In this document: positions 25,293 through 31,613 of the stretch, in pieces
How the letters are laid out: each line of letters opens with the position of its first letter
How positions within the stretch are numbered: the stretch's first letter is position 1
Notes under the pieces: generated by a model
What the model saw: the letters and a program-made list of their open reading frames with translations, nothing else
Databases searched by the model: none
Told to the model about the DNA's origin: nothing
NCBI GenBank assembly: GCA_003290165.1
Contig: QNQO01000594.1
Span: 248,001-312,000, forward strand
From: Berberis thunbergii
Taxonomy: Eukaryota > Streptophyta > Magnoliopsida > Ranunculales > Berberidaceae
Reading direction: 5' to 3'
DNA: 64,000 bases
Translations under genes and position numbers: made by a program

Positions 25293-26402
25293 TCATATAT
25301 AGTCTATGTTATTGATATTGTTGACGTAGTCGCTTTTTATCCAATTCTGGAGGCATATCAATGCCTCCACAAAATTCGGAGTGAGAGATGATCTAAAGGG
25401 ATCAATCACTCGGCCTCCGGTGCTAAAATCACTCTCACTAGCAACTGTTGACACTTGAATAGGCAATACATCTTTTGCTAGCAGTGCAAGTGTGGGGTAC
25501 TTGGTCCCATTCAGCTTCCACCATCTCAAAATGTCAAACATCTCAATCTTTTTAGCTTTCTCTAATGGATCCATGAGATACCTATCCACCTCATGTGAAA
25601 GCACAACATCTTCCATATCTTCTAGCTCCTTCTCTCAATCATCCATCATCTCATAAAGTATTGAAGGACTTTCGGTTGGTGCTAGTTCACATTTTGGACA
25701 CTTGTCCATGTATCGGTAGTTAAACTGACTCTGTGCTTCCTCAATTGCCCTTTTAAACCTTCTTTCATGTCATGATACATTTGTAAGAACTCCCTCACAA
25801 TAGTTCTTCGAGATGGAACATGAAGTCTTGGTTGTATTTCACTCATCATCCGCCTAAAACCCTCCTTCTCAATAGTATTAAAAGGCATTTCATCAAGTAC
25901 TAGAAACTCAACAATGGCTTTCACACTTGCATCTTGACTAAACCCCCTAGCAACTAGCATGCTGCTACCATCACTGGAAGTACCAAGAACCCTATGTTGT
26001 AAGTCCATATTTGGTTTATACTTTTTGCATACACTTCTGATGTGTTTAGCAAGAGTACTAGTGCCACCTCCACCACTATCACACTTGATCACAATATTTA
26101 CACTTTGCCTTATGTACATCTACCTCTATCACCTTTTTCTGATCACCCTCAACTAGAACTTCACGTGATTCTTTTACAGTAAATTTGGTGATATGATCCT
26201 AAACCCAATATCTAGATTGTATAATTTTTGGAGCATTTGGTGTTTTTCTTTTTCTTAATTGGGACTCGGGAGGGTTGAGAGGAGGCATGGATGTTTGTGG
26301 TGTAGATACTTGTGCAGGACAAGGTGATGTAGCAGTAGAAGATGTTGCTATTTTACTAGTTTGGTTGGGGGTAATACTTTTAGACATGGTCACTTTGAAC
26401 AC
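25293..26402 (-). pseudogene. hAT transposase remnant (BED finger, partial core, hATC domain)
   Basis: Read on the minus strand, 26,402-26,199 is a Ser/Pro/Thr-rich N-terminus. About 26,200-26,000 encodes BED-finger pieces (KCKYC, then TLAKHIRSVC) separated by a frameshift. The segment 26,119-25,682 continues to SLTTDTWTS, which holds the first catalytic Asp of hAT enzymes. 25,616-25,293 encodes the C-terminal dimerisation domain (DILRWWKLNGTKYPTLA, then ASESDFSTGGRV). The central part of the catalytic domain between the last two pieces is deleted at about 25,690. The protein belongs to the RICESLEEPER/DAYSLEEPER type and would be inactive. Confidence 0.8.
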
Positions 26403-28208: not shown

Positions 28209-28418
28209 TGGGCTCAAGGCTCGCAACTGAGTATGGGCTCCAGGCTCAAATTAAAGCCTTCTTATGATGTTTTTAGGGTTTCGGGGGGACGGAGGTCTCG
28301 TCTCGTCTCGTTTGTATATAATCGACACAAACCTCTACATCTCACCTTCTTCTGCGAGAGGCGAAATTTGCCTTTTAGGGTTTAGACTTGTCACCTTCTC
28401 TCTCACAGCGTTCCAACA
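28209..28418 (+). promoter_or_regulatory. RPS5 promoter and 5' leader: site II, telo-box and TATA motifs
   Basis: Two TGGGCT site II elements lie at 28,209-28,214 and 28,234-28,239. A telo-box-like TTTAGGGTTT (reverse AAACCCTAAA) is at 28,272-28,281, and a second TTTTAGGGTTTAG at 28,373-28,385. A TATATAAT box is at 28,315-28,322, about 100 bp before the ATG. In plants, site II plus telo-box is a known signature of ribosomal protein promoters in dividing cells. The transcription start is not determined; if the TATA box is used, the second telo-box is in the 5' UTR. Confidence 0.7.
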
Positions 28419-31400
28419 ATGGCCCTTGCTGTCGCTGCTGAAGCTGCTGCCACCCCTATCCTGATCAAGGAACCCAGAGAGAACGAAGTCAGGCTGTTCA
28501 ACCGATGGACATTTGACGACATTCAGGTCTCTCTCCCTCTCTCTCAGTTCCTTCTCTTGTGGTAAAACTGTTCAACTTCTTATTGCTTTCAATCCATCTA
28601 TAAACTATAATGTTAACAGCCGCATCTTCAGCTATCTATTTGCGAAGATTTCATCTCTAAAGATAGCTGTAGAAGGTGATGAGTATTGTATGGTGTGTTA
28701 TACTGTAAATCTCAGTTAAAACATTGGTTCTACTTCGTTGTCAAATTCAACTATAAATTTTTGTGTTTTTTTAATACCCTTTAATCTAAATAAACTTTTG
28801 GTCCTCGTTTGGGGCGAGGATGATTGGTGCTATTATTTTTCTGACACCTCTTGTATGAGAGGAGTTCATGTTATTGATCTCTTCGTTGAGCACATTAGCA
28901 ACCCTCTGAGCCCATTTTGAGTTATCCATTTTTTTTTCTTTGGTTACTTGGCTTATTATACTAATCTATTGTGATCTAATATTGAGTGTTTTCTATTCAT
29001 TGTTTGCCTCAACTGAGTTTGTAGCCCAATGTTATTAACAATCTCTTTTTGCGAATGGGACTTTAGATTTCTATCATAATAATTGTATTTGTGTCACAAC
29101 ATGATTGTGTCAATCATGTATACCCAATATGATTATTTCAACTTTTGTCTTATAGACAACTATTGTGTTTATTTGTTGAAGTTGACCCCATCCCGTTCAT
29201 TCCCAATTGAACTAAGTAGATATTTCTTTAATTTGAGTCGAGAAACTAGAGTTTAATATCAATAAGTTTTCTGAATTTTCCGGTCTTTGATTTCGTGGCA
29301 AAGATGAATGAGTGCTATTTTTCTGACACCTCTTGTATGAGTGGAGTTCATTTTTTAATGTTCTCTTCGTTGAGCACATTAGCAACAATCTGAGCCCATT
29401 TATCTTTGTTGAATGCTATTTGATGTTTGTTGTATTTTGTTAAATTTTCATCGTTACCTTTAATCTGACTCAAGAAATTAGAGATTAATTTTCTAAAAAA
29501 AAATTTCTAAAATTTCCAGTCTTTAATATTGCTGCAAGGATGAATGAGTGCTATTTTTCTGACACCTCTTGTATGAGGGGAGTTCATCTTTGATGTTCTC
29601 TTCATTGAGCACATTAGCAACCCTCTGAGCGCATTTCTTTATTCCTTGTGTTTTCCTGTTTCTTTTCTGATGCATTTGCTCAAATTTTATTGGCTGATTT
29701 GCAAACTAGTATTTGTTCATTACATTTATCAGCTAGGTTTAGGATCTTTATATTTCTTTTTGATTTTTATATCTCTCTGCAAAAGTAACATTCGACGTGT
29801 GGTAAATGTGAGGTGCTATTATATACTAAGATCAATTAATTTTCTAAAATTTCCAGTCTTTGATATTGCTGCAAGGATGAATGAGTGCTATTTTTCTGAC
29901 ACATCTTGTATGAGAGGAGTTCATCTTTGATGTCCTCTTCGTTGAGCACATTAGCAACACTCTGAGCCCATTTCTTTATTCTGTTTTTTTTTCCTGTTGG
30001 TTCTTTTCTGATTCATTTGCTCAATTTTTTATTGGCCGATTCGCAAACTAGTATATGTTCATTACATTTATCGGATAGGTTTAGGATCTTTAGATTTTTT
30101 TTAGTTTTTTATATCTTTCTGCAAAAGTAACATTCAACGTGTGGTAAGCACTTAGAGAAAAGGTGCTACTATATGCTAAAATCAATTAATTTTCTAAAAT
30201 TTCCAGTCTTTGATATTGCTGCAAGGATGAATGAGTGCTATTTTTCTGACACCTCTTGTATGAGGGGAGTTCATCTTTGATGTTCTCTTCATTGAGCACA
30301 TTAGCAACACTCTGAGCCCATTTCTTTATTCTGTTTTTTTTTCCTGTTGGTTCTTTTCTGATGCATTTGCTCAATTTTTTATCGGCCAATTTACAAAATA
30401 GTATTTCTTCATTACATTTATGGGCTAGGTTAAGGAGCCTTAGATTTTTTTTAGTTTTTTTATCTCTTTGCAAAAATAACATTCAATGTGTAGTAAGCAT
30501 TTAGAGACAAGGTAAGAATTGTTCAAACTCTAGACCTTCTCATGTATGTGGTTTTCGCTGGACTGCTACTTTTTTGGTTAGTGTTTTTCATACTTCTTTG
30601 TCTGGGTGATGATCCCTGGTACTAAAGGTCAATAGATGTTTTAAACTTTTGTTTCGAGGTATATGATTGGTCCTGTCATTAACTTGTTTACTTGAGAAAC
30701 ATCCTTTTCACTACAAATAATTAACTTGTCTTTTGCTTTATTCTTGTTTTGTGTTCTTGTGCATGTCAGTTTTAATTGCTTAGAATAATGTTCATATTTG
30801 TTTATGCTATGTTCCAGATCTACTTGTATTTTTTGTTTCTTTGGTTCTAACGGTTTCTGCGACATTGGCCTTTGTTCCTCACACAGCTTTAACCTTTGCA
30901 GATCTCAGACATCTCTCTCAATGACTATATTGCTGTAGATGCTGGCAAGCATGCAACCTTTGTTCCTCACACAGCTGGTCGATACTCAGTTAAGAGGTTT
31001 AGAAAGGCACAATGCCCAATTATTGAGAGGCTGACAAACTCTCTGATGATGCACGGTCGGAACAATGGGAAGAAACTGATGGCCGTCCGCATCGTGAATC
31101 ACACCATGGAGATAATCCACCTTCTTACGGACTCGAATCCCATTCAAGTCATTGTTGATGCTGTTATCAACAGGTAGATAGATTGCTTTACTGACTCCCC
31201 CCCCCCCCCCCCCCCCTTGGTTTTACCTTGTAGCTCATATTTCAAATCCTTATTTGCAGTGGTCCAAGAGAAGATGCAACCCGAATCGGATCTGCTGGTG
31301 TTGTAAGGCGTCAGGCTGTTGATATATCTCCATTAAGGCGTGTGAACCAGGCACTTTATCTTCTAACAACTGGTGCTCGTGAAAGTGCATTCAGGAATAT

Positions 31401-31613
31401 CAAGACCATTGCTGAGTGCTTGGCAGATGAGCTTATTAATGCTGCTAAGGGTTCATCCAACAGGTATATATCGTTGATATTCATATTTTAGTTGCAAGTT
31501 CTGTGAAGTTTCTTACCTGTATTGTATTCTGATTTCCCCAGAACTTTTATATTTTCAGCTATGCGATCAAAAAGAAGGATGAAATCGAGCGAGTTGCCAA
31601 GGCCAATCGTTAG
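28419..31613 (+). CDS. RPS5: 40S ribosomal protein S5 (uS7), four exons, intact
   Basis: The exons are 28,419-28,526, 30,902-31,173, 31,260-31,463 and 31,559-31,613; every intron is GT...AG. They join in frame to 639 bp, encoding 212 residues plus a stop, against about 207 in Arabidopsis RPS5. The start is the first ATG after the leader and gives an Ala-rich N-terminus before LFNRWTFDD. Landmark uS7 motifs are [55 protein letters not shown] and the C-terminal [14 protein letters not shown]. The protein sits at the head of the 40S subunit by the mRNA exit channel and E site. Intron 1 (2,375 bp) is unusually long and filled with repeats of a snoRNA-like unit. Intron 2 has a 20-nt C run. No defects were seen, so this is likely an expressed gene. 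Confidence 0.95.
28812..28913 (+). ncRNA. Candidate box C/D snoRNA, copy 1 (RPS5 intron 1)
   Basis: A GGGC/GCCC terminal stem (28,812-28,815 with 28,910-28,913) encloses a box C-like ATGATTG (28,820-28,826) and a D'-like CTGA (28,841-28,844). Next come a CCTCT/AGAGG hairpin, a C'-like TTGATC (28,874-28,879), and box D CTGA (28,906-28,909). This is the layout of an intronic C/D snoRNA, and plant ribosomal protein introns often host them. The guide upstream of box D would be around cacattagcaaccct. I could not match it to an rRNA site. Box C is imperfect. Confidence 0.5.
29296..29396 (+). ncRNA. Candidate box C/D snoRNA, copy 2
   Basis: Same unit as copy 1, with gatgaatgagtg in the box C position, CTGA at 29,323-29,326, the hairpin, and box D CTGA at 29,390-29,393. 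The C' region is altered (ttttttaatg) and the terminal stem is reduced to GGC/GCC, so this copy may be decaying. Confidence 0.4.
29533..29632 (+). ncRNA. Candidate box C/D snoRNA, copy 3
   Basis: Same unit: ggatgaatgagtg, D' CTGA, hairpin, C' tttgatg at 29,589-29,595, and box D CTGA at 29,625-29,628. The distal stem base is changed (gagcgca instead of gagccca). It begins the better-conserved group of copies. Confidence 0.45.
29869..29970 (+). ncRNA. Candidate box C/D snoRNA, copy 4
   Basis: Same unit with an intact D' CTGA, hairpin, C' tttgatg and box D CTGA before gccca. Its flanks are duplicated together with it (see the tandem repeat at 29,636-30,515). Confidence 0.45.
30219..30320 (+). 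ncRNA. Candidate box C/D snoRNA, copy 5
   Basis: Nearly identical to copy 4 across the unit and in the preceding aatttccagtctttgatattg. The boxes are the same. It is the last full unit before the splice acceptor at 30,901. Confidence 0.45.
31197..31216 (+). repeat. 20-nt poly-C run in RPS5 intron 2
   Basis: Twenty consecutive C bases begin 24 nt into the 86-nt intron 2. The acceptor lies about 43 nt downstream after a T-rich stretch. The length is likely polymorphic, and it could instead be a sequencing or assembly artefact. Confidence 0.8.

What the first reader, a model, noticed from the sequence alone, without database searches (positions are those of the whole stretch)
28812..30320. Five-copy snoRNA-like repeat expanding intron 1 of RPS5
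A unit of about 100 nt recurs five times in one intron and is better conserved than the surrounding intron. The conserved blocks are a C-like box, CTGA, a CCTCT/AGAGG hairpin, a C'-like tttgatg, a cacattagcaac block, CTGA and gccca. Copy 1 has a GGGC/GCCC closing stem. This is the layout of a box C/D snoRNA, and ribosomal protein introns are known hosts. A homogeneous five-copy cluster in RPS5 is unusual, and I could not assign the guide to any known target. It may be an orphan or lineage-specific family.
Basis: partly seen in the sequence, partly recalled or inferred. Interest (0 to 1): 0.78.

Follow-up and report, generated by a model that had tools for sequence, protein, structure and literature searches.

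The report
Five tandem snoR1 genes in RPS5
Five copies of a known guide RNA, snoR1, which directs a chemical mark onto the large ribosomal RNA, sit in the first intron of a ribosomal protein gene; this is an ordinary kind of arrangement in plants.

Summary
In detail: five ~100-nt units lie in intron 1 (28527-30901) of RPS5 (uS7). The 'orphan or lineage-specific' reading is wrong. All five match Rfam RF00345, the box C/D snoRNA snoR1, at 69-80 bits (cut-off 49; E 1e-12 to 1e-15). The target can be assigned: ATTTTTCTGACACCTCT pairs over 17 nt (16 Watson-Crick, one G-U) with LSU rRNA AGAGGTGTCAGAAAAGT in four of five copies, using rRNA of other eukaryotes. 0 of 500 shuffles per rRNA set reach 15 uninterrupted Watson-Crick pairs. 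A published Arabidopsis methylation map assigns SnoR1 to 25S G2792, suggests G2794, and calls it the apparent orthologue of yeast snR48. The promoter has the site II plus telo-box layout described for plant ribosomal-protein and snoRNA genes. Copy 4 carries a guide mismatch opposite the second target G. I had no RNA data, no rRNA of this organism and no related RPS5 introns. Verdict: known family, known mechanism, local tandem duplication. Low interest.

The parts
28813..28912 (+). snoR1 copy 1
   Evidence: RF00345, 80.0 bits, E 1.2e-15
29297..29396 (+). snoR1 copy 2
   Evidence: RF00345, 75.2 bits, E 2.3e-14
29533..29631 (+). snoR1 copy 3
   Evidence: RF00345, 71.5 bits, E 2.1e-13
29870..29968 (+). 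snoR1 copy 4, with A where the other four have C in the guide at 29903, opposite the second target G
   Evidence: RF00345, 69.0 bits, E 1e-12; duplex with the L002 target -20.2 against -26.8 kcal/mol for the other four
30220..30318 (+). snoR1 copy 5
   Evidence: RF00345, 69.9 bits, E 5.9e-13
28817..28823 (+). box C of copy 1 (AGGATGA; 6 of 7 of RUGAUGA). Others begin at 29301, 29537, 29874, 30224
   Evidence: consensus RUGAUGA as quoted in PMC5389607
28835..28851 (+). guide of copy 1, ATTTTTCTGACACCTCT, to LSU rRNA. Same in copies 2 (29317-29333), 3 (29553-29569), 5 (30240-30256); copy 4 pairs 13 nt (29890-29902) before its mismatch
   Evidence: the 14-nt core occurs at exactly these four places in the window, 0 expected from shuffles
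28853..28858 (+). D' region GTATGA of copy 1, identical in the five (29335, 29571, 29908, 30258)
   Evidence: the first target G pairs five nt upstream of ATGA and the second five nt upstream of GTAT (my count; inference)
28906..28909 (+). box D (CTGA) of copy 1. Others begin at 29390, 29625, 29962, 30312
28527..30901 (+). intron 1 of the host gene, carrying the five copies
   Evidence: GT..AG, exons join in frame
28419..31613 (+). RPS5 (uS7) coding region, exons 28419-28526, 30902-31173, 31260-31463, 31559-31613 (stop included)
   Evidence: 212-aa product; best PDB match named 40S ribosomal protein uS7, E 5.4e-114; Pfam Ribosomal_S7 on part of exon 2
28209..28383 (+). upstream elements: site II TGGGCT at 28209 and 28234, telo boxes TAGGGTTT at 28274 and 28376
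   Evidence: definitions from PMC3022908 and PMC4660826. Whole window, both orientations: 52 site II and 9 telo boxes

Best explanation
An intronic tandem cluster of five snoR1 genes. RNA polymerase II transcribes RPS5 from a telo-box/site II promoter; intron 1 is released by splicing and each ~100-nt unit is trimmed to a box C/D snoRNA. The guide upstream of the D' region pairs with large-subunit rRNA at AGAGGUGUCAGAAAAGU, and fibrillarin methylates the 2'-O of the first G (Arabidopsis 25S G2792). As in yeast snR48, a six-nt D' region with two overlapping boxes probably lets the same guide also reach the G two bases on (G2794). The copies arose by tandem duplication, copies 3-5 most recently. 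Shown here: family membership, host, boxes, guide pairing with rRNA of other eukaryotes, duplication. From papers: the methylated sites and the assignment in Arabidopsis. Inferred: that the organism is a plant, transcription, processing, two-site use and the activity of each copy.
For: Five of five copies above the Rfam cut-off for snoR1. Guide pairing of 17 nt in 4 of 5 copies with LSU rRNA of L002 and L003 and 16 nt with L001; copy 4 pairs 13 nt in the three. In 500 shuffles of copy 1 against each of three rRNA sets, 0 reached 15 uninterrupted Watson-Crick pairs, the observed value for L002 and L003. The guide lies at the right distance from the D' region. PMC8053127 assigns SnoR1 to G2792 and likens it to yeast snR48. 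PMC5389607 shows that snR48 methylates two Gs one base apart through an unusual six-nt D' box, AUGUUA. Host and upstream elements fit.
Against: No RNA data. The rRNAs are not this organism's, and the four records were found by a pattern that holds most of the target, so their agreement is partly by selection. The yeast LSU text in PMC8527467 has C where they have T, which would give one internal mismatch. Counting G-U pairs, run length alone is not special: the longest run in shuffles averages 14 and reaches 20-22. For L001 the observed 14 strict pairs equal the shuffle maximum. Copy 4 alone (11 strict pairs) is within the shuffle range. Box C is one base off in 5 of 5. No clear C' box; PMC8053127 also leaves it unassigned. 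The terminal stem is 2-3 pairs in copies 2-5. The stretch before box D finds no rRNA partner above shuffles. A second Arabidopsis modification survey, PMC8351944, has no mention of snoR1, 2792, 2794 or snR48 in its main text. That RF00345 is the SnoR1 of PMC8053127 rests on the shared name and on the fit of the guide.
Confidence: 0.94

Rival explanations
1. An orphan or lineage-specific snoRNA family without an rRNA target.
For: The conserved stretch before box D has no rRNA match above shuffles.
Against: Match to a curated family in 5 of 5 copies; 17-nt rRNA pairing next to D' in 4 of 5; published site.
Confidence: 0.02
2. A variant of the best explanation, not exclusive with it: only some copies are working snoRNA genes, and others, copy 4 first, are decaying duplicates.
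For: Copy 4 has a guide mismatch opposite the second target G and a weaker duplex, -20.2 against -26.8 kcal/mol; copy 3 has GCGC instead of GCCC at its 3' end.
Against: All five keep C, D' and D boxes and score at least 20 bits above the Rfam cut-off. Copy 4 can still pair with the first G.
Confidence: 0.35
3. A dispersed transposon-like repeat that happens to resemble a snoRNA.
For: Repeated unit with duplicated flanks in copies 3-5.
Against: The snoRNA part is shared by the five while the flanks of copy 1 are not; no further snoR1 match at the cut-off in the 64-kb window; the family model explains the unit end to end. The rest of the genome could not be searched, and no transposon library was at hand.
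Confidence: 0.01

Closest known systems
snoR1 (Rfam RF00345; Arabidopsis SnoR1)
   Same: Full-length match of the five copies; the Rfam consensus shows the same guide core, the same GUAUGA and nearly the same block before box D.
   Different: Five copies in one RPS5 intron; PMC8053127 speaks of two SnoR1 variants in Arabidopsis. Longer linker before CUCUUC than the Rfam consensus.
Yeast snR48
   Same: Target region with two Gs one base apart; unusual six-nt D' region.
   Different: D' is AUGUUA in yeast, GTATGA here. Two-site activity was tested in yeast; in Arabidopsis it is a suggestion.
Rice intronic snoRNA loci in ribosomal-protein genes
   Same: snoRNA loci in introns of ribosomal-protein genes with telo box and site II promoters (PMC3022908, passages).
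   Different: I did not see their composition, so a five-copy array of one family was not compared.

Membership tests
snoR1, RF00345 | Covariance model score at or above the curators' cut-off of 49 bits | tested here: met
   69.0-80.0 bits in 5 of 5, model positions 1-93 of 93
snoR1, RF00345 | Guide to 25S G2792 | tested here: met
   17-nt pairing in 4 of 5 copies on L002 and L003 LSU rRNA, 13 nt in copy 4. That this G is Arabidopsis G2792 rests on PMC8053127 and on recalled numbering; this organism's own rRNA was not available.
Box C/D snoRNA | Box C RUGAUGA and box D CUGA near the ends, short terminal stem | tested here: met
   D exact in 5 of 5; C 6 of 7 in 5 of 5; stem 4, 3, 3, 2 and 2 pairs in copies 1-5, read from the sequence
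Box C/D snoRNA | Internal C' box | tested here: inconclusive
   TTTGATG in copies 3-5 only; unassigned in Arabidopsis SnoR1 too
Box C/D snoRNA | Stable RNA bound by fibrillarin, Nop56, Nop58 and 15.5K | not testable with these tools
   needs RNA or protein data
snR48-type two-site guide | Both Gs methylated by the one guide | not testable with these tools
   predicted from spacing to GTATGA; needs methylation mapping

The most novel reading that the evidence does not exclude
The array is a natural test of two-site guiding: four copies can pair across both Gs, while copy 4 has a mismatch exactly opposite the second G and may methylate only the first. The expansion would then tune the ratio of two neighbouring marks in helix 88 of domain V of the large ribosomal RNA.
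Probability: 0.1. Interest if true: 0.45.

Novelty: new member of a known kind. Interest (0 to 1): 0.17.

Why it matters
It gives an annotation: five snoR1 genes, their host and their target. The modest new points are a single-family five-copy array in RPS5 and a natural guide variant in copy 4 that could help test how snR48-type guides reach two sites.

Tried and rejected
Orphan family: rejected on the Rfam match and the guide pairing. Box D' at the internal CTGA: rejected, because that CTGA pairs with rRNA as part of the guide. CCTCT/AGAGG hairpin: rejected as a conserved element. Target for the 18 nt before box D: best strict run 7-9 nt in the three rRNA sets; 300 shuffled 18-mers against L002 average 7.8 with maximum 11; nothing found, and snRNAs and mRNAs were not tested. 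Sixth, degenerate copy in the intron: none at E up to 5. DNA similar to copy 1 in the plasmid collection: none, uninformative for a nuclear gene. A paper on snoR1 in RPS5 introns: searches gave capped lists of which I saw titles and starts of abstracts; of the 15 listed (42 papers held at least four of the terms), 0 held both RPS5 and snoR1. Most subscription journals are not in the library, so this is no proof of absence. PMC5122169, PMC7464842 and PMC8351944 were searched for snoR1 terms and gave nothing on it (in one search the matches shown were to longer names). The own-genome search did not complete.

Full report
What is there. An Rfam scan of the whole window gives five matches at the curators' cut-offs, all to RF00345 snoR1, all on + strand, at 28813-28912, 29297-29396, 29533-29631, 29870-29968 and 30220-30318, with 80.0, 75.2, 71.5, 69.0 and 69.9 bits against a cut-off of 49. 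All five cover the model from end to end. A permissive scan of the intron adds no sixth copy; its two further rows (Ocean-VII at 17.6 bits, Afu_264 at 16.6 bits) lie far below their cut-offs.

Host. Joining 28419-28526, 30902-31173, 31260-31463 and 31559 onward gives a 212-aa protein, whose best match among solved structures is named 40S ribosomal protein uS7, E 5.4e-114; part of exon 2 alone matches Pfam Ribosomal_S7. Intron 1 is 28527-30901, 2375 nt, GT...AG. Upstream lie two site II elements (28209, 28234) and two telo boxes (28274, 28376); the whole window holds 52 site II and 9 telo-box matches in both orientations. PMC3022908 (abstract and passages seen) reports this combination in promoters of ribosomal-protein genes and of genes with intronic snoRNA clusters. 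It counts 31 intronic loci among 109 rice snoRNA loci, 15 of them in ribosomal-protein genes, and calls intronic loci the exception in Arabidopsis. PMC4660826 (passages seen) says that most plant hosts of intronic snoRNAs encode ribosomal proteins or ribosome-biogenesis proteins, and that intronic snoRNAs are released from spliced introns. That the window is from a plant is my inference from the promoter elements and the snoRNA family.

Conservation. The ten pairwise identities among the units are 85-98%; for the 100 nt upstream of each they are 50-81%, for the 100 nt downstream 57-92%, with shuffled backgrounds of 50-57%. The eight flank comparisons with copy 1 give 50-61%. Copies 3-5 belong to a longer duplicated segment with spacing 337 and 350, so conservation is less telling there: copy 4 against 5, 95 of 99 columns inside and 220 of 245 outside; copy 3 against 4, 93 of 99 and 206 of 249.

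Target. The rRNA of this organism was not at hand. A pattern scan of genome contigs, with one base of the target left open, found four records titled as bacterial bins that hold eukaryotic rDNA; Rfam finds eukaryotic LSU rRNA on 4 of 4. At the open base each has T; the rest of the agreement is by selection. The earlier pattern with C there found nothing, while a primer for yeast LSU in PMC8527467 has C. The complement of the guide has T. I scanned the five copies against LSU, SSU and, where present, 5.8S of L001-L003; L004 holds only LSU fragments and was left out. The run with most Watson-Crick pairs in copies 1, 2, 3 and 5 is ATTTTTCTGACACCTCT against AGAGGTGTCAGAAAAGT, 17 nt with 16 Watson-Crick pairs, in L002 and L003, and 16 nt with 15 in L001; copy 4 has 13 nt with 12.

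Control. Copy 1 was shuffled 500 times per rRNA set. Uninterrupted Watson-Crick pairs: observed 15, 15 and 14 for L002, L003 and L001; shuffle maxima 13, 14 and 14; 0 of 500 reached 15 in each. Watson-Crick pairs in a run that may hold G-U: observed 16, 16 and 15; shuffle maxima 16, 15 and 15; 2, 4 and 1 of 500 reached 15. Length of run with G-U: observed 17, 17 and 16; shuffle mean about 14, maxima 21, 22 and 20, so length alone says nothing. Copy 4 has 11 strict pairs, and 17, 11 and 9 of 500 shuffles reached 12, so copy 4 alone would not stand. The family match and the position next to the D' region add weight that the shuffles do not count.

The internal CTGA was read as a box. It is the middle of the guide. 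The D' region is GTATGA, the same in the five. Counting from ATGA, the fifth base upstream pairs with the first G of AGAGG; counting from GTAT, the fifth pairs with the second G. This is my count.

Published function. PMC8053127 (two passages seen) states that Arabidopsis G2792 and G2794 are both methylated, that G2792 is targeted by SnoR1, that G2794 may be reached by the D' guide of SnoR1, that SnoR1 appears to be the orthologue of yeast snR48, that box C' is not assigned, and that the prediction was not validated for want of a mutant. In its discussion the yeast RNA is printed snR45, which I take to be a slip. PMC5389607 (abstract, outline and passages seen) shows that yeast snR48 methylates G2791 and G2793 in helix 88 through an unusual D' region AUGUUA that offers two overlapping boxes. 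That the yeast Gs are the two in AGAGG agrees with recalled numbering (yeast A2820 = E. coli A2451), which comes from no call. PMC8351944, another Arabidopsis survey, does not mention snoR1, 2792, 2794 or snR48 in its main text.

Results against. Box C reads AGGATGA or AAGATGA, one base off RUGAUGA in 5 of 5. The terminal stem is weak in copies 2-5. C' is unclear. The invariant TTGAGCACATTAGCAAC block before box D has no rRNA partner above shuffles. Copy 4 has a guide mismatch and a duplex of -20.2 against -26.8 kcal/mol. There is no RNA evidence here, and the own-genome search did not complete.

Verdict. A new set of members of a known family in a usual kind of host, with a known target. Whether five copies is unusual was not tested. 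I did not find snoR1 in RPS5 introns in the lists, but those lists are capped and the library lacks most subscription journals.

The shuffle results are now given in full, the selection of the rRNA records is stated, the end of the coding region is 31613, and 'plant-type', 'unrelated' and 'unusual number' were taken out.

Noticed in passing
30869-30888 and 30957-30976: A 20-nt direct repeat, CCTTTGTTCCTCACACAGCT, lies once near the end of intron 1 and once inside exon 2 of RPS5; both hold a CACAG that could serve as a splice acceptor.
   Followed up: no
31197-31216: A run of 20 C in intron 2 of RPS5, the only + strand C run of 12 or more in the window.
   Followed up: no
25682-26119, - strand: A 145-aa open frame that looks, from memory, like a piece of a hAT-type transposase; no Pfam match at E 0.001.
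   Followed up: partly
28886-28902 and the same place in the other four copies: The block TTGAGCACATTAGCAAC before box D is invariant in the five copies and nearly so in the Rfam consensus, but has no rRNA partner above shuffles; its role is open.
   Followed up: partly
29903: Copy 4 alone has A for C in the guide, opposite the second target G.
   Followed up: yes
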